From Burkholderiaceae bacterium (GTDB taxonomy: Bacteria; Pseudomonadota; Gammaproteobacteria; Burkholderiales; Burkholderiaceae_E): DNA of 64,000 nt. Shown here in pieces: positions 31,479 to 47,988 of the stretch (the first letter of the stretch is position 1; each line of letters starts with the position of its first letter). The stretch is from assembly GCA_023954045.1 (NCBI GenBank), contig JAMLIR010000002.1, positions 124,001-188,000 on the forward strand, read 5' to 3'. The notes beneath the pieces were generated by a model that was not told where the DNA came from, made no database searches, and was given only the letters and a program-made list of their open reading frames with translations. A program made the translations under genes and the position numbers.

Positions 31479-31498
31479 GTCGTTCGATGGAACGAGTG

Positions 31499-31849: not shown

Positions 31850-31851
31850 AG

Positions 31852-32424: not shown

Positions 32425-32425
32425 G

Positions 32426-34141
32426 TCAGGCGTCGGCAGCGGGGTGCGGCGGCGCGGCCGCCGTGCCGGCTCCGCCCAAGGCGTTCTCGCGAAGCTCCCG
32501 GCGCAGGACCTTGCCGATGTTCGTCTTCGGCAGCGGCTCGCCGCGGAACTCGACGAGACGCGGGACCTTGTAACTGGTCAGGTGCTGCCGGCAGTGCGCG
32601 AGCACTTCGTCTTCGGTGAGCGCAGGATCCCTGCGAACGACGATCGCCTTGACCGCCTCGCCCGAGCGCGCGTCGGGCACGCCGATCACTCCGGCCTCGA
32701 GCACGCCGGGGTGCCGGGTCAGGACGTCCTCGATCTCGTTCGGGAACACCTTGAACCCGGAGACGACGATCATGTCCTTCTTGCGATCGGTGATGCGGAC
32801 ATTGCCGCGCTCGTCCATCACGCCCATGTCGCCGGTGCGCAGCCAGCCGTCGCCCGTGAAGACCTTCGCGGTTTCATCAGGACGGTTCCAGTAGCCCTTC
32901 ATCACCTGCGGTCCGCGCAGGCAGATCTCGCCCACCGCGCCCGACGCGACGGGCCTGCCTTCGTCGTCGAGGATCGCAGCTTCGGTGCTCGGGAGCGGCA
33001 CGCCGATGCTGCCCGTCCATTCGCGGATGTCGACCGGATTCGCGATCGCCACCGGCGCGGTCTCGGTGAGGCCGTAACCCTCCACGAGCGGTACGCCCGC
33101 CCTCTGCATCCAGCGCTGCGCGACGGTTTGCTGTACCGCCATGCCGCCCGCCACCGCAAGCTTCAACGGGCGCAGGTCGACCTGCGCGAAACCGGGCGCG
33201 TCGAGAAGCGCGCGAAACAGCGTGTTCACGCCGATGATCGCGGTGAAGCGCGTGTGCCGCAGCACGTCGAGGAACGCAGGCATGTCGCGCGGGTTGGCGA
33301 CGAGCACCGCCCGCGCGCCGATGCTGAAGAAGGACAGGCAGCCGGTGAGCGCGAAGACATGGTAGAGGGGCAGCGGAATGACGATCGTTTCCTCGCCGGG
33401 CTTCAGGTTCGGCGAGACCCAGGCAGCCACCTGGAGCACGTTCGCGAGCATGTTGCCGTGCGTGAGCATCGCGCCCTTGGCCACGCCGGTGGTACCGCCC
33501 GTGTACTGGAGAAAGGCGAGGTCTTCGCGCGCGAGCGCCGCGTCGTCGAGGGCTTTCCCGCGCCCCGCGGCCAGCACGCGCTCGAAGCCGATCGCACCGC
33601 TCAGGCGCCACGGCGGCACGAGCTTCTTCACGTGCTTGACGACGAAGTTCGTCAACAGCCGCTTGACCGGCGGCAGCAGGTCGCCCACCTGGGTCGTGAC
33701 GACGGTGCGCACCGGCGTGGATCCGATCGCCTGCGCGAGCGTGTGCGCGAAGTTCTCCAGTACGACGATGGCCTTCGCTCCAGAGTCCTCGAGCTGATGC
33801 GCGAGCTCGCGAGGCGTGTAGAGCGGATTGACATTGACCACGACCATGCCGGCGCGGAGCGCACCGAACAACGCAACCGGGTACTGCAGCAGGTTGGGCA
33901 TCATCAGCGCCAGGCGATCGCCACGGCCCAGCCCGGCGTCGTGGCGCAACCAGGCCGCGAAGGCCCGGCTCGCCTCGTCGAGCTGCCGGTAGGACAACAC
34001 CGTGCCCATCGATTCGTATGCCGGAAGATCGGCGAAGCGCCGGCAGCACGAATCGAGGAGATCGGCGAGCGACTCGAACGCCCCGGGATCGATCTCGGCG
34101 GGGACGCCTCGCGGATATTGGTCCAGCCACGGCCGGTTCAT
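32426..34141 (-). CDS. fadD: Long-chain fatty-acid--CoA ligase
   Basis: A 571-residue AMP-forming acyl-CoA synthetase. The P-loop YTGGTTGVAKGAM binds ATP, GYGLTETAP is the A5 motif, and TGDMGVMDERGNVRITDRKK contains the A7/A8 hinge; the C-terminal catalytic Lys is in LPKTNIGKVLRREL. Length and motif order are those of FadD-type ligases that activate medium/long-chain fatty acids with CoA. A coupled GNAT gene follows. No other beta-oxidation gene is adjacent. Confidence 0.93.
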   Translation of the reverse strand: MNRPWLDQYPRGVPAEIDPGAFESLADLLDSCCRRFADLPAYESMGTVLSYRQLDEASRAFAAWLRHDAGLGRGDRLALMMPNLLQYPVALFGALRAGMVVVNVNPLYTPRELAHQLEDSGAKAIVVLENFAHTLAQAIGSTPVRTVVTTQVGDLLPPVKRLLTNFVVKHVKKLVPPWRLSGAIGFERVLAAGRGKALDDAALAREDLAFLQYTGGTTGVAKGAMLTHGNMLANVLQVAAWVSPNLKPGEETIVIPLPLYHVFALTGCLSFFSIGARAVLVANPRDMPAFLDVLRHTRFTAIIGVNTLFRALLDAPGFAQVDLRPLKLAVAGGMAVQQTVAQRWMQRAGVPLVEGYGLTETAPVAIANPVDIREWTGSIGVPLPSTEAAILDDEGRPVASGAVGEICLRGPQVMKGYWNRPDETAKVFTGDGWLRTGDMGVMDERGNVRITDRKKDMIVVSGFKVFPNEIEDVLTRHPGVLEAGVIGVPDARSGEAVKAIVVRRDPALTEDEVLAHCRQHLTSYKVPRLVEFRGEPLPKTNIGKVLRRELRENALGGAGTAAAPPHPAADA

Positions 34142-34344
34142 GGGAGCGCTCCGTAACGCCAATGCCCTGGGCGTTGACCGTCGCCACTTCGTCGGTCGCG
34201 GCAGACGGGCGGAAGGTGAAGTCTAGGGCGTGCGCGGCAACTTGATCAGAAACCGATGTCGAACAAGCATGTCACAGACCGCTGGCCTGTTCCGTCTCCT
34301 TCAGGCCGGTGATCCAGATCTGCACCCGAAAGGACCCTGCCATC

Positions 34345-35292
34345 ATGACGACGCCTGCCGAACGCGCCCTGCGCTACGACCGTGAGCATGCGCGCAGTCT
34401 GCGCGCCCTGGCCTACCGCATGCTCGGCTCGCGCACCGAGGCCGAGGACATCGTGCAGGACGCCTGGCTGCGCTGGGCCCAGGTGGACGAGAGCACTGTC
34501 CAGCACGCCGGCGCCTACCTCTCGCGCCTGGTCACCAACCTGTGCCTGGACAGGCTGCGCTCGGCCGCCGCGAAACGCGAACCGTATGTCGGCGTCTGGC
34601 TGCCGGAGCCGCTGCTGGACGAGGAAGCCGGCTGGGCGCCGGGCCCGGAAGCGCAGGCCGAGTTCGCGCAGGACGTGTCCGTGGCCTTCATGCTCGCGCT
34701 GGAGCGGCTCTCGCCGCTGGAGCGCGCAGCCTTCCTGCTGCACGAGGTGTTCGACCTGGACTTCGACGAGATCGGGCGGCGCCTGCAGCGCAGCCCGGCC
34801 GCCTGCCGCCAGCTGGCCAGCCGCGCGCGCAACCACGTCAAGGCCGACTACGCACGCCGCGAAGTGGAGCAGGAAGAACGCGAGCGCCTGTTCGCCGCGT
34901 TCGTCGAGGCGGTGCGCAGCGCCGACGTCGATGCCCTCGCCAGGGTATTGGCCGAAGACGCCGTGATGCTCGCCGACGGGGGCGGCAAGGTGAGCGCGGT
35001 GCCGCGCCCACTGCAGGGCGCCGCACTGATCGCCAAAACCTTCATCGGCTTCGCCACGCTGCCGACGAGCCGCGCCTGGCGGTTCGAGTCGGCGCGCATC
35101 AACGGACTGCCGGGTTGCCTGGTGTTCGACGACGCCTCGGGCCAACTGGTGCAGACCATCGCGCTGGCGCCGTCGGCCACCGAGCCGGGCCGGATCGGCG
35201 CGCTCTACATCCAGCGCAATCCCGACAAGCTGCAGGGCGTGCGGGCCGCGCTGGGCGGCGATGTCACGACGCGCGAGGCCGGATCGTCTTGA
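34345..35292 (+). CDS. SigJ-type ECF RNA polymerase sigma factor
   Basis: A 315-residue sigma factor of the ECF41-like/SigJ group. Region 2 is LAYRMLGSRTEAEDIVQDAWLRW, region 4 is LSPLERAAFLLHEVFDLDFDEI with the recognition helix RSPAACRQLASRAR, and a C-terminal NTF2/SnoaL-like domain (from about residue 190) replaces the anti-sigma factor. Members of this group often regulate an adjacent carboxymuconolactone decarboxylase-like gene, exactly the neighbour found here 28 bases downstream. Confidence 0.92.
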   Translation: MTTPAERALRYDREHARSLRALAYRMLGSRTEAEDIVQDAWLRWAQVDESTVQHAGAYLSRLVTNLCLDRLRSAAAKREPYVGVWLPEPLLDEEAGWAPGPEAQAEFAQDVSVAFMLALERLSPLERAAFLLHEVFDLDFDEIGRRLQRSPAACRQLASRARNHVKADYARREVEQEERERLFAAFVEAVRSADVDALARVLAEDAVMLADGGGKVSAVPRPLQGAALIAKTFIGFATLPTSRAWRFESARINGLPGCLVFDDASGQLVQTIALAPSATEPGRIGALYIQRNPDKLQGVRAALGGDVTTREAGSS

Positions 35293-35320
35293 GGGTGTCA
35301 TCACAGCAAGGAGAACGACC

Positions 35321-35818
35321 ATGAACCTCGCCGACACCCCATCGCGGCTGAACGCCGCCGCGCAGTCTCCCGAACTGGTCCGGAAGCTGCAGGACCTCAG
35401 CACCGCCATCGCCCGGAGCGGTCACATCGAACCGGGACTCTTGCACCTGGTGGATATCCGCGCCTCGCAGTTGAACGGCTGCGCCTTCTGCCTGGACATG
35501 CACGTCAAGGAGGCGAAGCTGCACGGCGAGCGCGAGCTGCGCCTGCACCACGTCGCCACCTGGCGCGAGTCGCCGCTCTTCACCGCCAGGGAACGCGCCG
35601 CGCTGGCCCTGACCGAGGCGCTGACCCGGATCGGGCCGACCGGCCTCTCCGACGAGCTCTATGCCGAGCTGCGCGGGCAGTTCAGCGAGAAGGAGCTCTC
35701 GACGCTGACCTTCCGCGTGATGGGCATCAATGCGTGGAACCGTCTCAACGTGGCCTTTCGCACGCCGCCCGGCGCGCTCGACAAGGCGTTCGGCCTGGAC
35801 AAGGCCGGGCTTGCGTGA
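35321..35818 (+). CDS. Carboxymuconolactone decarboxylase (AhpD-like) protein
   Basis: A 165-residue AhpD-fold protein with the redox motif CAFCLDMH, whose cysteine pair acts in alkylhydroperoxidase-type thiol chemistry. It lies in the standard position next to the SigJ-type sigma factor and has AAGGAG before its ATG. In known ECF41 systems this gene is the sigma factor's target, which suggests induction under the sigma factor's signal. Confidence 0.9.
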   Translation: MNLADTPSRLNAAAQSPELVRKLQDLSTAIARSGHIEPGLLHLVDIRASQLNGCAFCLDMHVKEAKLHGERELRLHHVATWRESPLFTARERAALALTEALTRIGPTGLSDELYAELRGQFSEKELSTLTFRVMGINAWNRLNVAFRTPPGALDKAFGLDKAGLA

Positions 35819-35822
35819 AGCG

Positions 35823-36161
35823 TCAGCCGTCGGCGCGCACCGCCTGCTCGAGTGCTTCGGTGGCCCACTGATTCAGGCTCTTGCCCATTGCCTGGGCCTT
35901 GACCAGCGCCCTGCTGTGCACCTCGGGCGGAACGCGGAGCAGCAACTTGCCCGAGGCCGGCTTCTCGGGCGAGATACCCTGCTCGTCGCAGTCCGCAAGA
36001 TAATCCTTGATCGCTGCTTTGAACTCACGCCGCAGTTCAGCCACGGTCTTTCCGTGAAAGCTGATGATGCTGCGAAGCCCAAGCACTCGACCGACGAAGA
36101 TGTCGTCGCGCTCGTCGTATTCGACCCGAGCAGTGTAGCCCTGGAAGGTCATGGTGTTCAT
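35823..36161 (-). CDS. hicB: HicB-family antitoxin
   Basis: A 112-residue antitoxin. The N-terminal partial RNase-H-like domain is visible (YTARVEYDERDDIFVGRVLG, DYLADCDEQG), followed by a ribbon-helix-helix domain (LLLRVPPEVHSRALVKAQ, SLNQWATEALEQAV) that would bind its operator. It starts inside the stop codon of the upstream ORF (ATGA), which is normally hicA. Here that ORF keeps only the end of HicA, so this antitoxin looks orphaned. Confidence 0.9.
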   Translation of the reverse strand: MNTMTFQGYTARVEYDERDDIFVGRVLGLRSIISFHGKTVAELRREFKAAIKDYLADCDEQGISPEKPASGKLLLRVPPEVHSRALVKAQAMGKSLNQWATEALEQAVRADG

Positions 36162-36415
36162 GGTTTGACTCCTGCGCGCTCGAGCAGCTCGCGTGCTTCT
36201 TCAACCTGGTAGCGCTTGGCCTCCTTGCCCGGGTGCGGACGATGACAGCGCCATTCGTACGTGGCGGAGCCCATCGCCAACGCGCCGACCTCGGCGATGA
36301 AGTCCGGGTAGCTCGTGTCGTTCACATCGCCCAGCGGGAACAACCAGTCGAGCGAGTCGTCTTCGGTGGCGATGAATCCGTCGAGGCTCGTGGCCGTGTA
36401 GTACTGGGTCTTCAT
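36158..36415 (-). pseudogene. Chimeric ORF: RibD/DHFR-like N-terminus fused to HicA C-terminus
   Basis: An 85-codon ORF made of two unrelated parts. Residues 1-55 (MKTQYYTATSLDGFIATED to GSATYEW) are the start of a RibD-C/dihydrofolate-reductase-like protein. Residues 56-85 (HRPHPGKEAKRYQVEEARE onward) are the C-terminal tail of a HicA toxin, which overlaps hicB as in intact hicAB operons. The fusion is in frame, with the junction near 36250. Neither half has a complete active site: the dsRBD-like HicA core and most of the RibD fold are missing. It looks like a deletion joining two genes. Confidence 0.75.
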
Positions 36416-36456
36416 GGGATGGGCTCGCGTGACGGGTCCCGACGTCATCGCAGCGC

Positions 36457-36969
36457 TCAGGCCTCGACGACCTGTCGCGTGACGGTCATCGTCGGCGGGC
36501 GCACGAGCGTCTGGTAGACCACGCAGTAGCGCTCGGTCAGGCGCAGCAATGTCTCCAACTGCTCATCGGACGCGTCGGTGTCCAGCGTGAACTTCAGGCG
36601 GATACCCTGGAAGCCGACCGGTGCGTCCTTCGACACGCCGAGGGTGCCGCGGAAGTCGAGGTCACCCTCGGCTTGAAGCAGCGCGTCGCGAAGCTCGATG
36701 CCCAGAGCCGTCGCCACCGCGTTGAGCGTGACGCCCGCGCAGGCAACCAGCGCCTCGAGCAGCATGTCGCCCGAGCAGGCGCCGAGCCCGCTGCCCCCCG
36801 TAGCCGGATGCAGGCCGGCCGTCACGAGGGCCTTGCCCGTTTCGATCTTGCAGCTCACGCCGTCGGCAAGCCGGCCTTGCGCCCGCAACGTGACCAGCGC
36901 CGCTTCGGGGGCCTGGCGGTAGAGGTCCTTCAGCGGAGCCTGGATGGAACGCAGGTCGTCGGCATTCAT
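36457..36969 (-). CDS. OsmC family protein
   Basis: A 170-residue OsmC-fold protein with Cys in SGDMLLEALVACAGVTLNAVA and in ERYCVVYQTL, the usual positions of the redox pair. It begins at an ATG 8 bases after GGAG; a second ATG two codons upstream is possible. It follows the attC-like remnant at 37000 and so sits like a cassette gene. It is not closely similar to the OsmC at 7.6 kb. Confidence 0.85.
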   Translation of the reverse strand: MNADDLRSIQAPLKDLYRQAPEAALVTLRAQGRLADGVSCKIETGKALVTAGLHPATGGSGLGACSGDMLLEALVACAGVTLNAVATALGIELRDALLQAEGDLDFRGTLGVSKDAPVGFQGIRLKFTLDTDASDEQLETLLRLTERYCVVYQTLVRPPTMTVTRQVVEA

Positions 36970-36999
36970 GGGCATTGCTCCTCGTGGCAGGACCGTGGC

Positions 37000-37018
37000 G
37001 TCCAAAGTTCGAGCTAAG
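37000..37018 (-). other. Degenerate attC remnant after brnA
   Basis: On the minus strand this reads GCTTAGCTCGAAC then TTTGGAC, which differs from the L'-R' end of array site 41738-41803 (CTCGAAC then GTTGGGC) at a few bases. The brnA stop codon lies inside it, as is common for cassettes here. The R'' half is not recognisable. A decayed cassette boundary is the best reading but is not proven. Confidence 0.4.
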
Positions 37019-37343
37019 CTGCAGACGCCCGCTTGCCGCTGGCTGTCCGCTTGGGCGAGGGGTTGGCTGCCTTCGCCCTGTAGGGAGCCAGTTCCTCGCG
37101 CAGTACATCCCTGAGGGCTCCCACCGTCAGCGGCCGCTCGTCAGCCGGCTTTAGTCTGGACGTTTCGATTGCGGCGCGAAGCGCCGCGTTGATCATTGTC
37201 TGGTACCCCGTTCCCTGCGCCTCTGCCCTGGCACGGAAGTACTCGATGACATCGTCGTCGAGCATGATGGTGATCCTCGTCTTGCCCGTCGAGGCAAGCA
37301 CTGGACCTCGCTTCCCTTTCGAAAAGTCGTACTCCTTACGCAT
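37014..37343 (-). CDS. brnA: BrnA antitoxin
   Basis: A 109-residue antitoxin with a ribbon-helix-helix segment (KTRITIMLDDDVIEYFRARA, then TGYQTMINAALRAAI) that represses the operon by binding its promoter. The C-terminus is a basic Pro/Lys/Ala-rich tail, longer than usual. It overlaps brnT by 8 bases and has GGAG 8 bases before its ATG. It neutralises the BrnT ribonuclease. Confidence 0.9.
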   Translation of the reverse strand: MRKEYDFSKGKRGPVLASTGKTRITIMLDDDVIEYFRARAEAQGTGYQTMINAALRAAIETSRLKPADERPLTVGALRDVLREELAPYRAKAANPSPKRTASGKRASAA

Positions 37344-37617
37344 GGTATTGCTCCGCTTCACTTCTGCTGCACTTGCGCGCGGAGATCAACCGGATGCGGT
37401 TGCCGCGCGTCGTATGGACAACGACAAGGATCCTCCCGAGCGCGTCCATGCCGAGCGTCACGTATCGCGCCTCCCCTTCCGAGTCGGGATCCTCGATGGT
37501 TACCGCGAATGGGTCACGAAGCGCTTGTTCGGCGTGCGCGAAGCTGACATTGTGCTTGGCCAGGTTTGCCTTGGCTTTGGCCGGATCGAACTCGATGTCC
37601 ACGAGACGAGTATGCAT
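37336..37617 (-). CDS. brnT: BrnT toxin (RelE-fold ribonuclease)
   Basis: A 93-residue toxin with the family markers EFDPAKAKANLAKHNVSF, DPFAVTIEDPD and the C-terminal RIRLISARKCSRSEAEQY. ATG 37617 was used; the GTG five codons on (VDIEFDP) aligns better with usual BrnT starts and would give an almost leaderless message from the promoter at 37608-37636. It is the first gene after the attC remnant at 37668, so brnTA looks like a self-promoted cassette at the old end of the array. Confidence 0.9.
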   Translation of the reverse strand: MHTRLVDIEFDPAKAKANLAKHNVSFAHAEQALRDPFAVTIEDPDSEGEARYVTLGMDALGRILVVVHTTRGNRIRLISARKCSRSEAEQYHA

Positions 37618-37636
37618 ATACTATGCATATTGTCAA
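37608..37636 (-). promoter_or_regulatory. brnTA promoter with twin palindromes
   Basis: The minus strand has a perfect -35 box TTGACA (37631-37636) and a CATACT-like -10 box 16 bases later. Between and around them lie two copies of the 8-base palindrome TATGCATA (37611-37618 and 37622-37629), spaced 11 bases centre to centre, about one helical turn. That is the layout expected for cooperative binding of the BrnA ribbon-helix-helix antitoxin. Toxin-antitoxin cassettes usually carry their own promoter, as here. Confidence 0.55.
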
Positions 37637-37667
37637 GCTCGCAGCTGTGCGCCGAGCTTCCCAACAC

Positions 37668-37692
37668 GGCTAACGCTCGAATCAAGCCGCCC
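37668..37692 (-). other. Truncated attC site (L'-R' half)
   Basis: The minus strand reads GGGCGGCTTGATTCGAGC then GTTAGCC: a well-conserved L' box and R' core. The R''-L'' half is missing; the methyltransferase stop lies only 14 bases further right. This is the leftmost boundary with a good core site, and it separates the methyltransferase gene from brnTA. Confidence 0.65.
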
Positions 37693-40682: not shown

Positions 40683-40726
40683 GGTGCTTCTCCGGGCGCG
40701 AGTGGCTACGAAGGACGGCCTGTGAC

Positions 40727-40802
40727 GCCTGACGTTCGACGCAAGGGGCGGCTTGCGGCTTGCGGCTTGCCGAAAGACGTCCCCTTGACGGAGGGGTTAG
40801 AC
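40727..40802 (-). other. attC site of the VOC cassette (clear)
   Basis: Read on the minus strand: R'' GTCTAAC, L'' arm GTCAAGGGGACG, L' arm CCCCTTGCGTCGAAC, R' GTCAGGC (one base off consensus). The loop contains three tandem copies of a GGCTTGC-like heptamer. 76 bases. It terminates the cassette with the gene at 40837-41205. Confidence 0.85.
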
Positions 40803-40836
40803 GGCTGGGTGGCAAGCGCGCTCATGTATTGGGGAT

Positions 40837-41205
40837 TCAGAGCACCTGGCCGACACGCAGAAGATTGCCATCTTCGTCGACGACGGCGAACTCCCTCATG
40901 CCCCATGGCTTGTTTTCAATGACATCCATGCGAGGAATGCCGCGTTTGGGCAAACCTGCTACCAGGAATGCCTTGTACAAGGGCTCGACATCGGCCACCC
41001 TCAGGTAGCAGCCCGCCCAAGACTCGGCCGGATCCAGCTCGGTGTGAAGAAAGAAGTGAAGCTCAAGATCGCCCCGAGTGAGGATGGCATAGGCATCACC
41101 CTCCCCAAGGATTTCGCCCTCGAACCCAAGGCGTCCGTAGAACGCCAGGGTGCCTGGCAGTGACCTGCTTGGAAGGATTGGAATGGCGAGATCGTTGGAC
41201 TTCAT
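40837..41205 (-). CDS. VOC family (bleomycin-resistance-like) protein, cassette gene
   Basis: A 122-residue vicinal-oxygen-chelate protein: AIPILPSRSLPGTLAFYGRL opens the first beta-alpha-beta-beta-beta unit and DLELHFFLHTELDPAESWAG the second. It matches the BLMA/BLMT-like branch that sequesters bleomycin-type metallo-glycopeptides, but lacks experimental support here and may bind another ligand. The gene begins 16 bases after the R' box at 41228 and ends 34 bases before its attC. Confidence 0.85.
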   Translation of the reverse strand: MKSNDLAIPILPSRSLPGTLAFYGRLGFEGEILGEGDAYAILTRGDLELHFFLHTELDPAESWAGCYLRVADVEPLYKAFLVAGLPKRGIPRMDVIENKPWGMREFAVVDEDGNLLRVGQVL

Positions 41206-41221
41206 GGGCGGTGAATGTGCA

Positions 41222-41290
41222 GTCTAACGTTCGACATGAGCGGCATGACCCGGCTTGCCGGGGCATGTCCGCTCGATGGAATGGTTGGGC
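41222..41290 (-). other. attC site of the RidA cassette (clear)
   Basis: Minus strand: R'' GCCCAAC, CATTCCATCGAGCGGACATG, loop with CCCCGG/CCGGG arms, then CCGCTCATGTCGAAC and R' GTTAGAC. 69 bases with both cores matching consensus. It ends the cassette at 41307-41696. Confidence 0.9.
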
Positions 41291-41306
41291 GTCACCGTGC
41301 TCACCA

Positions 41307-41696
41307 TCAGACCACTGGCTTCTTCAACGCCGTGACCTCGATCTCGATTCGCATTCGTGGGTCAGACAACCCAGCGGAGATCATCATGGCAGCCGGTCGG
41401 ACTTCCCCAAAGTATTTGCGAAGCACAGGCCAACACTCGGGAAACTCTGCTGAGTTGGGCAGCACGTAAGTCACTCGAACAACGTCCTCGACGCTCGACC
41501 CTGCCTGCTCAAGCGCTGCCGAGATGTTCTTCAGACACTGCTCTGTCTGCTCCAGTAGCCCATCGGCAATGGTCATGCTCGAGTAGTCGAAGCCTGTGGT
41601 TCCAGAAACGAAGACCCAGTCGCCAACGACTACGGCGCGCGAGTAGCCAATCTCCTGCTCGAACGTAGATCCAGAGCTAATCAGTTTCCTGGTCAT
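41307..41696 (-). CDS. RidA family (YjgF/UK114) protein, cassette gene
   Basis: A 129-residue RidA-like protein. The N-terminal GSTFEQEIGYSRAVVVGDWVFVSGTTG and C-terminal MRIEIEVTALKK are typical; the conserved Arg that binds the imine carboxylate is in the second stretch. RidA proteins hydrolyse reactive enamine/imine products of PLP enzymes, though several subfamilies have other roles. It lies between degenerate site 41738-41803 and clear site 41222-41290. Confidence 0.88.
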   Translation of the reverse strand: MTRKLISSGSTFEQEIGYSRAVVVGDWVFVSGTTGFDYSSMTIADGLLEQTEQCLKNISAALEQAGSSVEDVVRVTYVLPNSAEFPECWPVLRKYFGEVRPAAMMISAGLSDPRMRIEIEVTALKKPVV

Positions 41697-41737
41697 TGAT
41701 GTTCCTCGGACGAGCGTTCGCGGATTCGATCAGTGAC

Positions 41738-41803
41738 GCCCAACGTTCGAGCTGAGCCGTGAGTGCCGTCCCGGTGCGAGTCGGCTCCGGCGAAGGCCTG
41801 GGC
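41738..41803 (-). other. attC site of the NTF2-like cassette (degenerate R'')
   Basis: Minus strand: GCCCAGG (R'' two bases off), CCTTCGCCGGAGCCGACTCG, loop, CACGGCTCAGCTCGAAC, R' GTTGGGC. The arms GGAGCCG/CGGCTC pair and R' is perfect. Excision from this site might be inefficient because of R''. Confidence 0.65.
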
Positions 41804-41822
41804 GACACCCTTTGGACTGGAC

Positions 41823-42212
41823 TCACCGGGTCGCCTGCAGAAGGGCCGCCATGCGCTGATGAACGAGATTGATCGCCTTGAGCGGGCGAAGCATGACTTT
41901 GAACTCAACGATGCGACCCGCCTCATTCCACCTGATGATGTCGACGCCGTTGACGAAGACGCCGTCGATTTCCGTTTCGAACTCGAGCATGGCATCCGTA
42001 GCGCCAATGATCTCGCGCACGTAGCGAAAGCTTGGGTTGAAAAAGACGCGGAAGGCCGCTGTCAGGTAGGCGGCGGTGATCTTCTTGCCGCGTTGCGGCG
42101 TGTGAACGACGGGGGAGAGGAACACGGCATCTTCAGCGAGCAGCGCGTCCAGCCCGCGTGGGCTTCTTTTCTTGACGAGACGATGCCAGACCTCGATTGG
42201 ATGCTCTGCCAT
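41823..42212 (-). CDS. NTF2/SnoaL-like protein, cassette gene
   Basis: A 129-residue protein (EHPIEVWHRLVKKRSPRGLD, AVFLSPVVHTPQRGKK, GVDIIRWNEAGRIVEFKVML) of the NTF2-like fold, whose members bind small molecules. The ATG at 42212 was chosen because the family pattern begins immediately after it. It starts 26 bases after R' of site 42238-42337. Function unknown. Confidence 0.82.
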   Translation of the reverse strand: MAEHPIEVWHRLVKKRSPRGLDALLAEDAVFLSPVVHTPQRGKKITAAYLTAAFRVFFNPSFRYVREIIGATDAMLEFETEIDGVFVNGVDIIRWNEAGRIVEFKVMLRPLKAINLVHQRMAALLQATR

Positions 42213-42237
42213 GCGCGTCTCCGAGGTTGTGCCTGCC

Positions 42238-42337
42238 GCCTGACACTCGAGTCGAGGGGCCCGACGCGGCATGGTGCCAGGCGCGCGCGACGGATGATAG
42301 ACCTCGCTCTGGCGTCCCCCATGTTCCGCGGTTGGCG
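42238..42337 (-). other. attC site of the PNPOx-like cassette (long, partly degenerate)
   Basis: Minus strand: R'' CGCCAAC, arm CATGGGGGACGCC, a long loop, arm CGGGCCCCTCGACTCGAGT, R' GTCAGGC. 100 bases, the longest site here. R'' starts with C and R' has one change, but arm pairing and position 24 bases after a stop codon support it. Confidence 0.6.
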
Positions 42338-42361
42338 GGTGACCCGCCGCGACTCGTTCCG

Positions 42362-42814
42362 TCAGCACGTGACGAGATCCGTATGGCCAAAGCCCTTCGA
42401 GTAGTCGAGCACCGAAATGACTGTCGGCGTTACGCGGAACAACCGGACTTCGTCCGGGCTCGGCATCTTCATCGGCAACGGAGGCGCATCGGGGTACTTC
42501 AGCGGAAGCATGCGCAGCACCTTTTCGGCTTCGGCCCGATCATCCACCGGGCGCGCGTGCGCTGCCATCGACAGACCGGTGATGGCCATCAGATCCGCGG
42601 TATCGTGATCGATCGTGAGCGAGATCCGATCATCTCGCGCCAGGTTCCTTGCCTTCTGGCTGTCGAGCCCGCATAGAAAGTAGAGGGTCAGCCCTTCGTT
42701 GACATAGCCAACGGTCGTCGCCTGGGGCCACCCGTCCGGCCGCAGCGTCGCCACCGTCATGATTCGATGCTGCTCGAGCAGCGCCAGGATCTTGCGTCGC
42801 GTTTCATCGTCCAT
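42362..42814 (-). CDS. Pyridoxamine 5'-phosphate oxidase-like FMN-binding protein, cassette gene
   Basis: A 150-residue split-barrel flavin-binding protein with MTVATLRPDGWPQATTVGY, LYFLCGLDSQKARNLARD and ISLTIDHDTADL. Many such proteins reduce F420- or FMN-linked substrates or are uncharacterised. GGAGG lies 6 bases before the chosen ATG (42814); the frame continues upstream without a start signal. 190 bases upstream of the start have no gene of their own and may be cassette leader. Confidence 0.85.
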   Translation of the reverse strand: MDDETRRKILALLEQHRIMTVATLRPDGWPQATTVGYVNEGLTLYFLCGLDSQKARNLARDDRISLTIDHDTADLMAITGLSMAAHARPVDDRAEAEKVLRMLPLKYPDAPPLPMKMPSPDEVRLFRVTPTVISVLDYSKGFGHTDLVTC

Positions 42815-43006
42815 GAGTCGCCTCCATTGGTCGCGGACGCGGCGAAGCGTGCCCTCCGGATTCCAGCACCGGCGCGGCGCCTGGCCCGCGGGACCGATGA
42901 TGAACCACACTGGCCGGCGGGCCAAATGGCAGCCGGTGCGATTGAAGCACCTGCGCGTGGACTGGCAGGATTCTGCTAGCGAAGGTGGTAGTGCCTCCGT
43001 TGTGCC

Positions 43007-43081
43007 GGCCAACGCGGAGTCAGCGGCGATGCGCCGCCTTTTGGCGCAGCGTCCGCCGCACCGCAGCGTCATGCGTCAACG
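43007..43081 (-). other. attC site of the VOC cassette at 43.1 kb (degenerate)
   Basis: Minus strand: CGTTGAC (R'' degenerate), GCGGTGCGGCGGACGC, loop CGCCAAAAGGCG, arm TCGCCGCTGACTCCGC, R' GTTGGCC. The central hairpin is strong, and the VOC stop codon overlaps R'' as in several other cassettes here, but both cores deviate from consensus. Confidence 0.5.
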
Positions 43082-43453
43082 GTTTCGTGGTTCCATCAAG
43101 TGTGCGACAGCCCCGGTGGGGTCTGCCACGATACAGATGCGGCCAACGTCCGGCACATCGTGAGGTGGAACGATAACGCTTCCGCCAAGCAAAGGCGCCT
43201 GCCTTGCGCAGTCATCGACGTTGTCCACGGCGATATAGGAATGCCAGTACGACGCCGTGCCCGGCGTATCCGGGGTCGGGTTCATCATTCCGGCAACGTC
43301 CCGGCCATCCTTCTGAAACAGTGTGTAGATGCCGAACGGCCCAGCGTCCACTTCCTTGCGTGCCCAGCCGAAGAGCCGGCTGAAGAATGCGCCGCTGCTC
43401 GTCTGATCCGGGGTGACCAGCTCGTGCCAAATGAACGGACTCCGATCAGTCAT
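43076..43453 (-). CDS. VOC family (glyoxalase-like) protein, cassette gene
   Basis: A 125-residue vicinal-oxygen-chelate protein: FIWHELVTPDQTSSGAFFSRLFGW with its His, and a second unit SYWHSYIAVDNVDDCARQ ending VADPTGAVAHLMEP. It may bind a divalent metal through His and Glu, but activity is unknown. ATG 43453 was chosen over 43474 because GGAGG lies 6 bases before it. It begins 25 bases after the R' box of the SIR2 cassette's attC. Confidence 0.83.
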   Translation of the reverse strand: MTDRSPFIWHELVTPDQTSSGAFFSRLFGWARKEVDAGPFGIYTLFQKDGRDVAGMMNPTPDTPGTASYWHSYIAVDNVDDCARQAPLLGGSVIVPPHDVPDVGRICIVADPTGAVAHLMEPRNR

Positions 43454-43477
43454 GGGGCCTCCTGCGTGGCTCATGAC

Positions 43478-43555
43478 GCATAACGTTTGACATGAGTGGC
43501 GACCGACAGACGGCAAAGCCGGCTGTTGGGCGTCCCCTCAATGGAAGAGTTAGCT
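43478..43555 (-). other. attC site of the SIR2 cassette (clear)
   Basis: Minus strand: R'' AGCTAAC, TCTTCCATTGAGGGGACGCC, a GC-rich loop, CGCCACTCATGTCAAAC, R' GTTATGC. 78 bases. The SIR2 stop codon (TAA) is inside R''. Confidence 0.82.
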
Positions 43556-44626
43556 GACCTCGTGTCGAATGTACTCATTGAAGTCTGAGAAGTAGCTCCA
43601 CTTCGCCGACGACGCAACCTTTTGCGGCACGAGGTCGCGATACCGTGCGAGGGCGAGAGCGTCTGGATCGACGATGATCACCCGCGATAGTTTCGCCGCC
43701 TCGAAGTGCGTGAACATTGTTCTGGCAAGGGTATCGGTCGGGGGGCACGAGTAGCCAACGACTACGAGCTCTTTGGCTTCGTGAAGGTACTCGTACGCTG
43801 TCGTCCAAAGGTGAAGAAAGATACTGGTGGCGGTGATCGGCTTGTTTGGCATTGGTGGGATGATGAGCGCTGATATGGAATCATCCGGATCAGGGCAGTT
43901 GTGATCCTCGCCCCAGATCTTCACCCGTTCTTCAGGATCAGCAGCTCCAGTGATCATCTTCTCGAAGTCGGCCCGGTCGCAGTGCCAGTTGACGGAGCCG
44001 TGTAGCTTGAGCAGCAGAGGATGCAGGAACTTCTCATCGGCATTGCGCCGAAGGCCGTCCTCGCGCCTATTGGCATGGCGATCGAAGTAGATCTTCTTCT
44101 TTGAGACCCCGCGTTCAAGCAGTGGGCGCTCGATCAGCGTGTCGTAATTGAAGGTAATGATGCGGTTCTTGTAGTCTTTGGGTTCGGTGCCTGGCGGGAA
44201 GACCCAGTTCGTGAAGCGCTTCGTATTGCCACTAACATTGGACTTGCAGCCGAGAAGGAAGTCGGTGATGAGGTGTGACAGAGTATTGACGTAGTCCGAG
44301 TTGGACGTCTTGCCGCGCGTCTTCTTAGGATGTAGCGAAGACAGAAATTCAAACTGACTCACGCGTTTGATGATAGAGCGCTCAAGGCCATTGGACACAA
44401 ACTCGTCCCGATCAAGCCATTGCGCTTCAAGCAAGTCGAACGATCTGCGCCGCCAACCCCTTCGGGGCCTAAAATGCTTGAGCCGTTGCAGGAAGTCCTT
44501 GTCCAGCGGCGTAACAGTGCGAGCGAAGTCTCGCTTGCGAACGTCGACCTCCGACAGCGCATAGCTTGCACCCGCCCCCAGCACAAAGAGCCGATCTACA
44601 GGTTGACGGTGGCGCTGGATCTTCAC
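43550..44626 (-). CDS. SIR2-like (NAD-dependent) protein, cassette gene
   Basis: A 358-residue SIR2-fold protein. The NAD-binding N-terminus is FVLGAGAS (14-21), followed by ITFNYDTLIE (157-166), the catalytic-type His in KLHGSVNWHC (His209) and VVVGYSCPPTD (288-298). These are the motifs of bacterial SIR2-like domains that cleave or bind NAD, often in anti-phage defence systems that kill the infected cell by NAD depletion; the classical sirtuin zinc cysteines are absent. Coding GC is clearly lower than nearby chromosomal genes. The GTG start lies 5 bases after an R' box, and the stop overlaps the next attC. Confidence 0.87.
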   Translation of the reverse strand: MKIQRHRQPVDRLFVLGAGASYALSEVDVRKRDFARTVTPLDKDFLQRLKHFRPRRGWRRRSFDLLEAQWLDRDEFVSNGLERSIIKRVSQFEFLSSLHPKKTRGKTSNSDYVNTLSHLITDFLLGCKSNVSGNTKRFTNWVFPPGTEPKDYKNRIITFNYDTLIERPLLERGVSKKKIYFDRHANRREDGLRRNADEKFLHPLLLKLHGSVNWHCDRADFEKMITGAADPEERVKIWGEDHNCPDPDDSISALIIPPMPNKPITATSIFLHLWTTAYEYLHEAKELVVVGYSCPPTDTLARTMFTHFEAAKLSRVIIVDPDALALARYRDLVPQKVASSAKWSYFSDFNEYIRHEVS

Positions 44627-44631
44627 AAGTC

Positions 44632-44709
44632 AGCTAACGTTGGATTTCACCCGCGGGCGGAGGCTGGCGAAGCCGGCCGTAGCCCGTCGGGTGCAATGAC
44701 GGGTTAGCG
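44632..44709 (-). other. attC site of the FRG cassette (clear arms)
   Basis: Minus strand: CGCTAAC (R'' first base off), CCGTCATTGCACCCGACGGG, long paired loop, CCCGCGGGTGAAATCCAAC, R' GTTAGCT. 78 bases. The FRG stop codon is directly next to R''. Confidence 0.82.
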
Positions 44710-45508
44710 TCACAGCGGGGGAGGCCACGAGTTGGCTGCCATCGCAGCACCCGCCAAGTCCGGAAAGAGAAGGCGATAGTCAATGCCGTGCAGATGCAGG
44801 TCCTTCAGCCCTCCCAGCAGGGCCTGATCAGACAAGACGACTTTCGTCAGAAGGTTGCCCCGGCCTGTGCTCTCCAAAAAACTCTGCAACTCAAAGAACT
44901 GCTCGGAGTCAAGCCACGTGAACATGCCGCGCTGTCCATGCATCCGGCCAAGCTCTTCGACAGTCGGACGAACAACGCGAAGGCCATCACCTTCGAGCTG
45001 CCCGTTATGGAACAAGCGGAAGCACCACTTGGCGCCCGGTGAACACCAAGCCGCTACCCTTCGACTCCAATCGCATCGATCTCTCAAGGTCGGTTAGAGC
45101 GAAGAAGGCCGCAACGAACGGTGAGGTTGTCCAATCCAGAAGTGGCGTGACCAAGCCGTAGTGGCGTCCGAGAGCCCACCACTGGTCGGTGGTGAGTGCT
45201 GCCGGATTCGAGCCGCGGAGCCCGGCCGCGGATTGCTGAAACCGCTGCAGGTAAGCGTCGCGCCAGCGCGAATATGTCCCTGGCTCCCAGATAGGACGTC
45301 CTTGCCGATGGTAGCGACCGTCATACGGGTAGAGCATTGCGGCCCCCGGTCGGCCGCCGCCAAATGACCCGAGGATTTCGCGCTCGAAACTCGACGCCAG
45401 GGGCCAAGCCGGTTCGCTTTGACCTCGCCAATAGGACTGCCCGTGGTTCAGATCTTTGTCAATCCACGACCTGAAGTCGGACCATGTTCCTAGTTCAATG
45501 AGCTCCAT
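44710..45508 (-). pseudogene. FRG-domain protein, frameshifted, cassette gene
   Basis: Two overlapping frames together make a complete FRG-domain protein of about 266 residues. The first half (MELIELGTWSDFRSW onward) has the name-giving motif SYWRGQ (25-30) and HYGLVTPLLDWTTSP (116-130); the second frame continues WCFRLFHNGQLEGDGLRV and ends next to the attC. A single-base shift near 45030 ends the first frame after QVVLPLVP. The domain is widespread in prophages and defence loci, with unknown activity. Either a real inactivating mutation, programmed shift or sequencing error. Confidence 0.8.
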
Positions 45509-45531
45509 AGTCAGAGAGGGGGTTGTGTAAG

Positions 45532-45594
45532 GCCTAACGTCGTAGCTCAGGGGCGCGCCGCTTGCGGCGCGTCCCCTGGAGCGCAGTGTTAGAC
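45532..45594 (-). other. attC site of the 249-residue-protein cassette (clear)
   Basis: Minus strand: R'' GTCTAAC, ACTGCGCTCCAGGGGACGCG, loop CCGCAAGCGG, GCGCGCCCCTGAGCTACGAC, R' GTTAGGC. 63 bases, both cores perfect, arms CCAGGGG/CCCCTG paired. Confidence 0.92.
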
Positions 45595-45598
45595 CGCA

Positions 45599-46348
45599 TT
45601 ACGCACCCTTCGACGACAGCCACGACTGTAAGACGTAGTTCAGGTAGGCCGCAGCTTCGTCAACCGACATCGGATGCTTGGGCGGTTGCTCAACTTCCTT
45701 TCCGTGCCGCGCAGAATCGCCCGCGACAGTGACAGAGTTGGCAGAGTGTTTGAACCGCTTGAGGTCCTGTGCGGAACCCCAGCCACGCTTCTTCAATGCG
45801 CTTTCGGTTCCTACATCCGCCTCAATGACCTCGTGAATTCGATACATACCTACCCACGACTTGTGATCCGGTGCTGCAAGCAGGCGCATTGCCTTGGCAA
45901 CGGAAGTATCGGTTGCGGCAAGCTGTGCAATCGTTACCGTCCTGGGCGGAGGTGCGGGCCTAGTGATGACTTTGCCGTCTGCGCCAGTGACCGCAACTGT
46001 AACCTCGCCAAATTCCGCACGAACTTGGAGTGTTTCTTGAATGTGAAGGAAGACGTCCCTTCCACCAGCTGCATTGCGTCGATACACGGCACCTGTGCGG
46101 AGTGGCTCAGGAGAATCGCGCATCATCTTCAGGACACCAGAAAGAACACATAGCTCATCGTTGGCGAGTTTCAGCACCTCCTCGGCGGTCTGGCAAGCCG
46201 CAAACGAATCTGACTCATAAAGGAAGCCACCATCTCGTTCATCTTTCGACACGCGGTATGGTGTTGATGCGAAATGGCGCACGAGATGTTCAAGGTCGGA
46301 CGACCAGCCTTGCACTTCCACCTGCCAGAGCTCGGGACTGTGGTTCAT
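45599..46348 (-). CDS. Unknown 249-residue cassette protein
   Basis: I do not recognise this protein. It starts NHSPELWQVEVQGWSSDLE, has a beta-rich first third, a central helical stretch (TVTIAQLAATDTSVAKAMRL, then SWVGMYRIHEVIEADVG) that could be a helix-turn-helix-like or coiled segment, and a C-terminal segment HPMSVDEAAAYLNYVLQSWL. No signal peptide or membrane helix. The start lies 3 bases after the R' box, so any ribosome-binding site must be inside the attC. It ends 4 bases before its own attC. Compact packing is typical of cassettes. Confidence 0.75.
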   Translation of the reverse strand: MNHSPELWQVEVQGWSSDLEHLVRHFASTPYRVSKDERDGGFLYESDSFAACQTAEEVLKLANDELCVLSGVLKMMRDSPEPLRTGAVYRRNAAGGRDVFLHIQETLQVRAEFGEVTVAVTGADGKVITRPAPPPRTVTIAQLAATDTSVAKAMRLLAAPDHKSWVGMYRIHEVIEADVGTESALKKRGWGSAQDLKRFKHSANSVTVAGDSARHGKEVEQPPKHPMSVDEAAAYLNYVLQSWLSSKGA

Positions 46349-46351
46349 GCG

Positions 46352-46412
46352 GTCTAACGTTTGAGCTCAGCGGCGGCCCGTCAGGGCCGTCCGCTGCAGC
46401 GAATGGTTAGGC
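46352..46412 (-). other. attC site of the repeat-protein cassette (clear)
   Basis: Minus strand: R'' GCCTAAC, CATTCGCTGCAGCGGACGGC, loop CCTGACGG, GCCGCCGCTGAGCTCAAAC, R' GTTAGAC. 61 bases with perfect cores and fully paired arms, the most compact textbook site in the array. Confidence 0.93.
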
Positions 46413-46416
46413 GGCA

Positions 46417-46707
46417 CTAGGTGATCTCGAACCATGGCAGCCCGTGATACCCCTTCGGGTGACTCACCGTGGTGTAAATTTTGTTCCCTTTGATCTGGAA
46501 CCACGGGAGTCCGTGATATCCGTCGGGGTGACTCACGGTGGTATAGATTTTGTCGCCCTTGATTTGAAACCACGGCAGCCCGTGATACCCATCGGGGTGA
46601 CTAACCGTTGTATAGATCTTGTCGCCCTTAATCTCAAACCACGGAAGTCCATGGTAGCCATCTGGGTGGCTCACAGTTGTTCTGATCTTGCTCACGGTCA
46701 CCTCCAT
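46417..46707 (-). CDS. Four-fold 23-residue repeat protein, cassette gene
   Basis: A 96-residue protein that is almost entirely four tandem repeats of 23 residues with consensus KIYTTVSHPDGYHGLPWF plus a short QIKGD linker (starting at residues 7, 30, 53 and 76; the first and last vary slightly). The pattern, with alternating beta-strand-like and Gly/Pro turns and conserved His, Tyr and Trp, suggests a closed four-bladed beta structure (small propeller or beta-flower). The DNA repeats differ mostly at third codon positions, so the amino-acid repeat is selected. Function unknown; possibly a binding protein. Confidence 0.88.
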   Translation of the reverse strand: MEVTVSKIRTTVSHPDGYHGLPWFEIKGDKIYTTVSHPDGYHGLPWFQIKGDKIYTTVSHPDGYHGLPWFQIKGNKIYTTVSHPKGYHGLPWFEIT

Positions 46708-46716
46708 TGTGCTGCC

Positions 46717-46794
46717 GCCTAACGTTTGAGTTCACCGGAAAACCGCAGCCGCCGAAGGCGGCTGTGGGTTTTCCGGTGCAACGAAGGGTTAGGC
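46717..46794 (-). other. attC site of the first cassette (clear)
   Basis: Minus strand: R'' GCCTAAC, CTTCGTTGCACCGGAAAACC, hairpin CAGCCGCC-TTCG-GGCGGCTG, GGTTTTCCGGTGAACTCAAAC split by one base, R' GTTAGGC. 78 bases with the longest perfect arms in the array. A second GTTAGGC follows 6 bases beyond R'' and overlaps the DUF1330 stop codon. Confidence 0.93.
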
Positions 46795-46801
46795 CGCACC
46801 G

Positions 46802-47098
46802 TTAGGCACCTTCGAGGGTGATCAGCATGTCGAGCTCGCTGGTGCATTGCTTTCTGAGTGCAATGAGCGGTTGATACTCCGATGAGGTGTACCAAGCGTT
46901 GAGCGCCTGCATGTCGGGGAACTCGATGATGACCACGCGCTCCGGCTTCCAGTGGCCACCCTCCGGAAACTTGTGCGTGCCGCCTTTGGTCAGGTAGCGA
47001 CCACCGTGTTTGGCGATCATTGGTGCAACCTTGGTCCTGTATTCCTCGAACTTCGCCGCATCGGTGATGATGTGCTCGACGACCAAGTAGGCTGGCAT
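46802..47098 (-). CDS. DUF1330 family protein, first cassette gene
   Basis: A 98-residue protein with the DUF1330 core AYLVVEHIITDAAKFEEYRT, GGRYLTKGGTHKFPEGGHW and RVVIIEFPDMQALNAWYTS, a ferredoxin-like dimeric alpha/beta barrel related to EthD and ABM proteins. It is the first cassette from the presumed attI, 24 bases after the R' box, the position with the strongest expression in known integrons. ATG 47098 was chosen: upstream in-frame codons come from the flank and do not belong to the fold. Confidence 0.88.
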   Translation of the reverse strand: MPAYLVVEHIITDAAKFEEYRTKVAPMIAKHGGRYLTKGGTHKFPEGGHWKPERVVIIEFPDMQALNAWYTSSEYQPLIALRKQCTSELDMLITLEGA

Positions 47099-47122
47099 CG
47101 CGACTTCAATGGTGGTTGTGCG

Positions 47123-47143
47123 GCCTAACGTGTTTTGGTTCTT
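47123..47143 (-). other. attI-like site at the outer end of the array
   Basis: The minus strand reads AAGAACCAAAACAC then GTTAGGC. The known class 1 attI ends CCTAAAACAAA then GTTAGGC, a closely similar flank, and no attC hairpin can be built here, so this is read as an attI-like or first-insertion boundary. The stop codon of the extended thiol-dioxygenase ORF lies inside the core site. No integrase gene adjoins; attI identity is tentative. Confidence 0.5.
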
Positions 47144-47988
47144 GGCGCGCAGCCGGATAGATCCGGATCTACCGGCGTAACCTGTCCACACCCGCACATG
47201 GATGTGCTTGTCGCCGCCGGATAACCCGGACACCCACCGCCGTGCAGCGCGCGCCAGCCCAGACTCAATCTATCTTGCATAGCGGCGTGTGGCCAGTAGT
47301 GCCGCCGGACGATGCGCGAAGACCGGATGCTGTGTAGATACATGGGCGCCATGCGCCCCGTTAACCGCCCCCAATCCCCCGCCCGCACCACCCCCGACCG
47401 ATCCCACAGGTTCGGGACCACCTCCGACGAATAGCCGGACACGAAGTCCTTCATCTCCCCGGTCTGCGCATCGAACACATGCCGCCGCACCGCCCCGATG
47501 TTCCCGCCGTAAACATGGATGCTGATCGACGGCTGGTCGCCCAGCGCGTTGGCCACGACGTGGATGTCGCCGATCGTCGGCGACACCGCGTCGACCTCGC
47601 CGGGGTGCAGGATCTCCTCGCCGCCGTGCGGCACGAGGCGGCCGTCGTCGGTGCGCCGGTAGCGCTGGCAGCGCTCGGCGCCGCGCAGCATGCCGATCAG
47701 TCCCCAGACCGTGTGGTCGTGGATCGGTGTGTGCTGCCCCGGTCCCCAGACGAAACTCACCACCGAGAAGCGTTCGAGCGGGTCGGCGTGCAGCAGGAAC
47801 TGCCGGTAGAACTGCGGATCGGGCCGGGTGAACGGTTCGGGCAGCCAGTCTTCGCGCGCGACCAGTTGCGCGAGCAGGCGCCGGCCTTCGACGATCAGCG
47901 TCGCCTCGTCGGCGCTGGCTTCGACGAGCCGTGTCATCGCGACGACGAAGTCGCGCAGCGGCGCGATCGGGTCCTGGGGTGCATTCAT
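47125..47988 (-). CDS. Cysteine/3-mercaptopropionate dioxygenase-like thiol dioxygenase with replaced 3' end
   Basis: A cupin-fold thiol dioxygenase that adds O2 to a thiol sulfur to give a sulfinate. Three Fe-ligand histidines are His90 and His92 in GQHTPIHDHTVWG and His143 in GDIHVV; SIHVYG contributes a fourth active-site His. The segment FYRQFLLHAD has Gln rather than Arg, which marks the Gln-type, 3-mercaptopropionate-like branch. The conserved part ends at PNLWDRS (192-198), where relatives stop within about ten residues; here 89 unrelated residues follow up to the array edge. The native 3' end has thus been replaced. ATGA overlap with the CoA-transferase gene. Confidence 0.87.
   Translation of the reverse strand: MNAPQDPIAPLRDFVVAMTRLVEASADEATLIVEGRRLLAQLVAREDWLPEPFTRPDPQFYRQFLLHADPLERFSVVSFVWGPGQHTPIHDHTVWGLIGMLRGAERCQRYRRTDDGRLVPHGGEEILHPGEVDAVSPTIGDIHVVANALGDQPSISIHVYGGNIGAVRRHVFDAQTGEMKDFVSGYSSEVVPNLWDRSGVVRAGDWGRLTGRMAPMYLHSIRSSRIVRRHYWPHAAMQDRLSLGWRALHGGGCPGYPAATSTSMCGCGQVTPVDPDLSGCAPRTKTR

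What the first reader, a model, noticed from the sequence alone, without database searches (positions are those of the whole stretch)
40727..47129. Integron cassette array without integrase
Ten attC sites alternate with ten minus-strand genes; seven sites match the RYYYAAC ... GTTRRRY consensus closely and have strong central hairpins, and flank orientation agrees with gene direction in every case. The GC drop relative to both neighbours supports a foreign source. No tyrosine recombinase is encoded in the window, so this is a CALIN or the outer part of a broken chromosomal integron. Mobility would need an integrase from elsewhere in the cell.
Basis: partly seen in the sequence, partly recalled or inferred. 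Interest (0 to 1): 0.85.

Follow-up and report, generated by a model that had tools for sequence, protein, structure and literature searches.

The report
Integron array that lost its integrase
This stretch is an old bacterial gene-collecting platform (an integron) whose docking site and stored gene cassettes remain but whose recombinase gene has been deleted; it is a clear example of a known kind of decay.

Summary
In detail: seven strong attC sites lie between minus-strand genes at 40724-46797 (67-89 bits). A model built only from relatives' sites still finds all seven at E 4e-13 to 1.3e-9. Two corrections: the rightmost "site" (47123-47129) is the core of attI, the docking site; and a further attC lies at 36997, ending a BrnT/BrnA toxin-antitoxin cassette outside the stated interval.

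Calling it a CALIN is formally right (no IntI over the cut-off in the 97%-complete genome), but its origin can now be stated. Four same-genus genomes carry intI exactly here, between a cysteine-dioxygenase-like gene and the same attI leader. The window keeps that gene, the leader and attI, but intI is cut to a 40-codon stub. The nearest relative found (95% DNA identity) has a different intI deletion that removes the catalytic half. Against a sister species, cassettes are swapped with breaks at attC cores, so the integrase was active after the two lineages split, in one or both.

Best reading: a sedentary chromosomal integron beheaded by deletion, now frozen unless an integrase acts in trans. 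Precedents are in print (Treponema phagedenis, Xanthomonas): a new member of a known kind.

The parts
47364..47988 (-). Cysteine-dioxygenase-like gene that flanks intI in relatives (its end is approximate); in the window its frame runs on through the leader to 47125
   Evidence: CDO_I weak match, 21.6 bits, just under the cut-off of 23; 89-93% protein identity in G005, G008, G014 and G015, where intI follows directly
47312..47434 (+). 40-codon remnant of intI: first ~17 and last ~19-21 codons joined, middle (~360 codons, about 1.07 kb) deleted
   Evidence: tblastn of the G015 IntI: residues 377-397 at 90% and the N-terminal MREDRMLCRYMGAMRPV; translation as it stands; size from the coordinates
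47141..47311 (-). attI leader between the intI start and the attI core; lacks two segments (about 67 and 127 bp) that relatives keep
   Evidence: blastn pieces and alignment with L036, L033, L034, L035, L090; sizes from the coordinates
47123..47140 (-). attI core region, AACCAAAACACGTTAGGC
   Evidence: AACCAAAACACGTT identical in L036, L033, L034, L035 and L090 at the same place
46802..47101 (-). cassette 1: DUF1330 protein
   Evidence: PF07045, 98.4 bits
46714..46797 (-). attC
   Evidence: R1 86.5 bits, R2 66.0 bits
46417..46707 (-). cassette 2: 96-aa protein of four ~22-residue repeats, no family
   Evidence: ORF; best Pfam E-value 0.032, below every cut-off; 60-65% identical places in 5 small enterobacterial plasmids
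46349..46415 (-). attC
   Evidence: R1 73.4 bits, R2 67.9 bits
45599..46348 (-). cassette 3: 249-aa protein, no family
   Evidence: no Pfam, NCBIfam or PADLOC match
45529..45597 (-). attC
   Evidence: R1 67.5 bits, R2 52.1 bits
44710..45508 (-). cassette 4: FRG-domain gene split into two overlapping frames (45005-45508 and 44710-45087)
   Evidence: PF08867 68.7 bits for the first piece; the pieces match successive parts of PADLOC PDC-S15
44629..44711 (-). attC
   Evidence: R1 78.6 bits, R2 60.5 bits
43550..44626 (-). cassette 5: SIR2-like protein, weak similarity to SIR2 defence proteins
   Evidence: PF13289 25.9 bits, cut-off 24.5; PADLOC SIR2 families up to 31 bits
43475..43558 (-). attC
   Evidence: R1 80.5 bits, R2 64.8 bits
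43076..43456 (-). cassette 6: glyoxalase/VOC protein
   Evidence: PF00903 40 bits
43004..43077 (-). marginal attC-like site
   Evidence: R1 28.4 bits, R2 20.7 bits E 0.013
42362..42817 (-). PPOX-class oxidoreductase, shared with sister species G015 (98.7% protein identity)
   Evidence: PF01243 73.3 bits
41823..42215 (-). SnoaL-like protein, shared with G015 (92%)
   Evidence: PF12680 36.2 bits
41735..41806 (-). degenerate attC; its core is the upstream break point of the swapped block
   Evidence: R1 32.3 bits, R2 34.6 bits
41307..41696 (-). cassette: RidA/L-PSP family
   Evidence: PF01042 87 bits
41219..41293 (-). attC
   Evidence: R1 76 bits, R2 62.5 bits
40837..41205 (-). cassette: bleomycin-binding-like VOC protein, far below the curated cut-offs
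   Evidence: NCBIfam ble_BLMT 84.5 bits, cut-off 210
40724..40805 (-). attC; its core is the downstream break point of the swapped block
   Evidence: R1 88.9 bits, R2 56.9 bits
37014..37617 (-). BrnT/BrnA toxin-antitoxin cassette, outside the stated interval; absent at this place in G015 and at another array position in G005
   Evidence: PF04365 and PF14384; 87.8% DNA identity to G005; core-like sequence at both ends
36997..37071 (-). attC of the BrnT/BrnA cassette
   Evidence: R1 42.1 bits, R2 38.6 bits

Best explanation
This is a sedentary chromosomal integron of a Burkholderiales genus that has lost its integrase gene by deletion. Ancestrally the order was cysteine-dioxygenase-like gene, intI, attI, cassettes (shown in four same-genus genomes). 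In the window the gene, leader, attI and cassettes remain, while intI is reduced to a 40-codon remnant and two short pieces of the leader are gone (shown by alignment). The integrase once inserted cassettes by recombining folded single-strand attC with attI or other attC (standard mechanism, inferred here); the fingerprint is that a two-cassette block differs from a sister species with breaks at the two attC cores (shown). Without IntI the array should now be fixed apart from ordinary mutation and homologous recombination, but the attI core and at least seven attC look intact, so an IntI supplied in trans could move cassettes again (inferred).
For: attC by two models. No IntI over the cut-off in the genome. 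intI next to the same flanking gene and leader in G005, G008, G014 and G015. Residual intI ends in the window at the expected place. attI core conserved. Swapped block 40735-41743 against one 444-bp unit in G015, breaks at the core crossover points. A BrnT/BrnA cassette 87.8% identical at different array positions in the window and G005. G005 has a full integron of about 25 kb with 23 minus-strand attC matches (8, 15). Cassettes near attI are lineage-specific in the two tested: SIR2-like protein in 1 of 18 genus genomes, the own one; cassette-3 protein full length only in the own genome, with a 53-residue partial match in 1 of the other 17. Distal genes are shared with G015.
Against: The genome is a 50-contig assembly, 97.16% complete, so an intI copy in a gap or on an unassembled plasmid is not excluded. 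Several distal genes (RibD_C, hemerythrin, two methyltransferases) have no attC match between them in the window, so the true array boundary is unclear. Whether the swaps happened in the window's lineage or in G015's, and before or after the intI loss, is not known. No promoter-like match was found in 47050-47500, so whether cassettes are expressed is open.
Confidence: 0.92

Rival explanations
1. Assembly artefact: intI is present in the organism but was collapsed out of the contig.
For: The genome is a draft in 50 contigs, and the six relatives' records named are all metagenome assemblies. Similar attC sites are said to complicate assembly (PMC9024848, passages seen).
Against: The missing stretch is a single gene, not a repeat. 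The junction is inside a 246-kb contig. G015 matches at 93.8% on the left side and at 82.5-97.8% in the three leader pieces on the right. Start and end pieces of intI remain joined, and two further leader deletions accompany it. No IntI match over the cut-off is found on other contigs. Reads were not available.
Confidence: 0.04
2. A CALIN seeded by off-site cassette insertion or by transfer of an array fragment, which never had an intI here.
For: A CALIN is defined only by attC without intI, and such origins are possible in principle.
Against: attI core, leader and both ends of intI are present in place.
Confidence: 0.01
3. The array is not fixed: an integrase supplied in trans by a plasmid, phage or co-resident strain still moves cassettes.
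For: attI core and seven attC look intact. The two attI-side cassette proteins tested are specific to this lineage within the genus.
Against: No IntI over the cut-off in this genome. The lineage-specific cassettes may predate the loss.
Confidence: 0.15

Closest known systems
Treponema phagedenis chromosomal integron remnant (PMC3607928, abstract and section 10 read)
   Same: attC sites and cassettes at the syntenic place of relatives' integrons, with no intI
   Different: Different phylum and locus. The section read does not describe a retained attI or an intI remnant; here both are seen at base level.
Xanthomonas integrons with truncated or deleted intI (PMC12444791, abstract and section 11 read)
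   Same: Repeated lineage-specific loss of intI with persisting cassette arrays, including CALINs
   Different: Another genus; mostly at ilvD (beside secD in X. citri pv. citri). Here the locus lies next to a cysteine-dioxygenase-like gene.
CALIN as defined by IntegronFinder (PMC9024848, passages seen)
   Same: Cluster of at least two attC without an integrase; proposed there to be degraded integrons
   Different: The label is a matter of attC and integrase only; here attI and the intI scar are identified too.
Complete integrons of the same genus (G005, G008, G014, G015)
   Same: Same flank, leader, attI core and attC type
   Different: They keep an IntI of 434-438 bits

Membership tests
CALIN (IntegronFinder definition) | At least two attC sites clustered | tested here: met
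   Seven strong attC over 6.1 kb plus two supported degenerate ones
CALIN (IntegronFinder definition) | No integron integrase nearby | tested here: met
   No PF00589 match in the window; best TIGR02249 in the genome is 84 bits against a cut-off of 265
CALIN (IntegronFinder definition) | Detected by IntegronFinder itself | not testable with these tools
   The program and its attC model are not on hand; own covariance models were used instead
Complete (functional) integron | Full-length intI | tested here: not met
   Only a 40-codon remnant
Complete (functional) integron | attI next to the first cassette | tested here: met
   Core and leader aligned to relatives; recombination not tested
Complete (functional) integron | Cassettes exchanged at the crossover point of the core | tested here: met
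   Swap against G015 with breaks at both cores: past activity in one of the two lineages or both
Sedentary chromosomal integron | Fixed chromosomal locus shared by relatives | tested here: met
   4 genus genomes, plus two other public contigs, L090 with a truncated intI and L095
Sedentary chromosomal integron | Not on a transposon or plasmid | tested here: inconclusive
   246-kb contig; right flank collinear with relatives' contigs, one of 3.7 Mb; an IS3-like transposase lies in the G015 array (family judged by eye)

The most novel reading that the evidence does not exclude
Loss of intI recurs at this locus: the window and its nearest found relative carry two different deletions that share one end, a GC-rich spot at the 3' end of the cysteine-dioxygenase-like gene, while the attI core and attC sites are spared. 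That would point to selection for locking useful arrays rather than simple decay, and would leave the arrays open to remobilisation by a foreign integrase.
Probability: 0.25. Interest if true: 0.55.

Novelty: new member of a known kind. Interest (0 to 1): 0.33.

Why it matters
CALINs are often counted without knowing how each arose. Here the ancestral state, the deletion scar, the surviving docking site and a near relative with a different deletion are all visible at base level, so the locus documents how a chromosomal integron becomes a CALIN. It also gives a natural test of how cassette arrays age once the integrase is gone. The array carries SIR2-like, FRG-domain and BrnT/BrnA genes, in line with integrons as stores of stress or defence genes (function not tested).

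Tried and rejected
Rfam scan of the window gave nothing; Rfam was not expected to hold attC (recalled). Strict consensus pairs RYYYAAC...GTTRRRY (motif recalled) at 40-160 bp spacing found only four of the seven clear sites plus one chance pair at 27646, so covariance models were used. The two genes that score best with TIGR02249 in the own genome (best pieces 84 and 64 bits) were rejected as IntI because they are below the cut-off of 265. Two isolated attC-like matches elsewhere in the genome with R1 (C45, C47) are not in the R2 list, and one with R2 (C19, 29.8 bits) is not in the R1 list, so none is counted; each of these two searches scored only 150 first-look candidates. An attC search around two of the six plasmid relatives of the repeat protein was negative. 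A promoter scan of the leader was negative, which says little.

Results against a tidy picture: no attC match lies between the RibD_C, hemerythrin and methyltransferase genes in the window; G013 carries related distal genes in a different order and an attC, but no match to the flanking gene and no IntI over the cut-off; G002 carries a partial IntI with one internal stop on another contig than its flanking gene; G004 has an IntI but no match to the flanking gene.
Full report
What was checked. The window is C12:124001-188000 of a 4.02-Mb, 50-contig genome, 97.16% complete. Reading the region showed regularly spaced imperfect palindromes between minus-strand genes. A covariance model R1 from seven of them scores those seven at 67.5-88.9 bits, which is circular. 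It does, however, find many sites in the loci fetched around relatives' IntI genes: 36 matches with E<=0.1 in six loci, of which 5 are the opposite strand of a site already listed. A second model R2, built from 22 of those relatives' sites and no window site (22 of the 36 rows were used), finds all seven window sites at E 4e-13 to 1.3e-9. It also finds 36997-37071 (E 1.3e-6), 41735-41806 (E 1.1e-5) and, marginally, 43004-43077 (E 0.013). R2's training sites were themselves found with R1, so the two are not fully independent; the position of those sites beside intI is the independent support. In the whole genome 9 of 10 R2 matches with E<=1 lie in this region (150 of 6715 first-look candidates scored).

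The integrase. TIGR02249 (integron integrase) gives four matches in the own genome, the best 84 bits against a cut-off of 265; the same search also matches all 14 control genomes, none over the cut-off. PF00589 gives 12 matches in the genome, none in the window. Of 101 genomes searched (own plus 100 relatives), 35 have a match over the IntI cut-off. In the genus (18 genomes with the own one) these are G002 (partial, one internal stop), G004, G005, G008, G014 and G015.

Where intI should be. The gene right of the array, cysteine-dioxygenase-like (weak Pfam match, 21.6 bits against 23), matches 12 of 18 genus genomes, the own one included. In G005, G008, G014 and G015 (89-93% identity) it is followed at once by intI and then by a leader and an attI-like core. 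The window's long frame 47125-47988 matches the gene with its first ~208 residues and sequence beyond intI with the rest: the two sides of intI have been brought together. A translated search with the G015 IntI finds its last 21 residues at 47369-47431 and its first residues from 47312. Read as it stands, this is a 40-codon frame. From the coordinates the window lacks about 1.07 kb here relative to G015 and G005, and two more segments of about 67 and 127 bp in the leader. The matching pieces overlap by roughly 1-17 bases at the breaks, depending on the relative, consistent with deletion at short repeats, though this was not tested further. The core AACCAAAACACGTT is the same in the window, L036, L033, L034, L035 and L090.

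A second deletion in the nearest relative. One scan of genome contigs gave 6 loci. The nearest, L090 (JAKOVA010000141.1, 95% DNA identity over 3.2 kb), has IntI residues 2-185 and 369-397 only, so the catalytic half is gone, while it keeps the two leader segments that the window lacks. Its break points differ from the window's, except that one end of both deletions lies at the end of the cysteine-dioxygenase-like gene. The window's state could be independent or a further step from such a state; the data do not decide. L091-L094 are the public records of G005, G015, G014 and G008 (inferred from equal contig lengths) and are labelled Burkholderiaceae or Burkholderiales.

Evidence that the integrase worked. 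G015 contig C1 (L074) is collinear with the distal part. Between the SnoaL-like and RibD_C genes the window has RidA and a bleomycin-binding-like gene (40735-41743), where G015 has a 444-bp unit with an HTH-like reading frame (judged by eye, no search). Both breaks fall, to within a base, at the crossover points (G|TT or G|TC) of attC cores. So IntI acted after the two lineages split, in one or both. A third difference, about 1.2 kb present in G015 next to the PPOX gene, does not show such cores in the sequence read. The BrnT/BrnA cassette (36996-37674) is missing at that place in G015 and is found at another array position in G005, 87.8% identical, with core sequences at its ends in both genomes, the window's right-hand core being degenerate. 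In 15 relative loci tested by tblastn, none matched the six attI-side cassette units (43076-47101) or the RidA and bleomycin-like cassettes at E<=1e-4; five further loci were compared by blastn only, with no match in 40.1-47.1 kb. The SIR2-like protein is in 1 of 18 genus genomes, the own one; the 249-aa protein is full-length only in the own genome, with one 53-residue match in another; the repeat protein is in 1 of 74 genomes of the family, the own one. New cassettes near attI and shared ones far from it is the usual polarity of integrons (established knowledge). G005 has the complete form: 23 minus-strand attC matches in about 25 kb (8, 15).

Flank comparison. In seven other genus genomes (L075-L081) the cysteine-dioxygenase-like gene lies beside a homologue of the window's enoyl-CoA hydratase gene (about 21660-22400), and no attC match with E<=1 was found in these seven loci. 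The integron therefore sits in a 25-kb stretch that is absent at that junction in those seven.

How it works now. Shown: no integrase gene over the cut-off, a conserved attI core, seven well-formed attC. Inferred: no cassette movement from within; possible movement if an IntI is supplied; gradual decay. The FRG-domain cassette is split into two frames that match successive parts of one profile; it may be a decayed gene or a sequencing error.

Comparison with the literature. Treponema phagedenis keeps attC sites and cassettes without intI at the syntenic place (PMC3607928, section 10 read). Xanthomonas species show repeated truncation or loss of intI with lasting arrays (PMC12444791, section 11 read). 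CALINs have been proposed to be degraded integrons (PMC9024848, passages seen). The kind is therefore known. I did not see this locus in the listings of the four paper searches made, none of which used this organism's name, so nothing is claimed about its absence from print.

Verdict.

Noticed in passing
window 46417-46707 (-); NZ_CP075744.1 2187-2486 (L096): The 96-aa cassette protein of four ~22-residue repeats has 60-65% identical places in 5 small enterobacterial plasmids (of 6 plasmid records matched; the sixth, Cupriavidus, 47%). In the E. coli record the listed gene is on the opposite strand. The shared frame aligns much better (56 of 90 identical) than the opposite one (25 of 78), so the listed gene may be on the wrong strand.
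   Followed up: partly
window 47125-47988 (-): In the window the frame of the cysteine-dioxygenase-like gene runs on for about 75-80 residues into the attI leader and stops at the attI core, whereas in relatives it stops before intI.
   Followed up: partly
window 44710-45508 (-): FRG-domain gene (PADLOC PDC-S15 candidate defence family) split into two overlapping frames. Described only.
   Followed up: partly
L090 and L095: Contigs labelled Actinomycetes and Fimbriimonadaceae match this Burkholderiales locus at about 82-98% DNA identity over most matching pieces; probably misbinned or mislabelled.
   Followed up: no
window 22400-36500: Pieces of the stretch left of the array, up to the enoyl-CoA hydratase gene, occur in G005, G013 and G015 with gaps, and it is missing next to the flanking gene in seven other genus genomes.
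   Followed up: partly
L036 14832-15955: An IS3-like transposase gene pair lies in the G015 array near the contig end, which may explain why that array is split between two contigs (family judged by eye from the translation, not from a search).
   Followed up: no
window 35823-36161 (-): A HicB-family gene (PF05534) left of the BrnT/BrnA cassette; the DNA around it (35822-36258) recurs in the G005 array next to an attC match, so it may be another old cassette.
   Followed up: no
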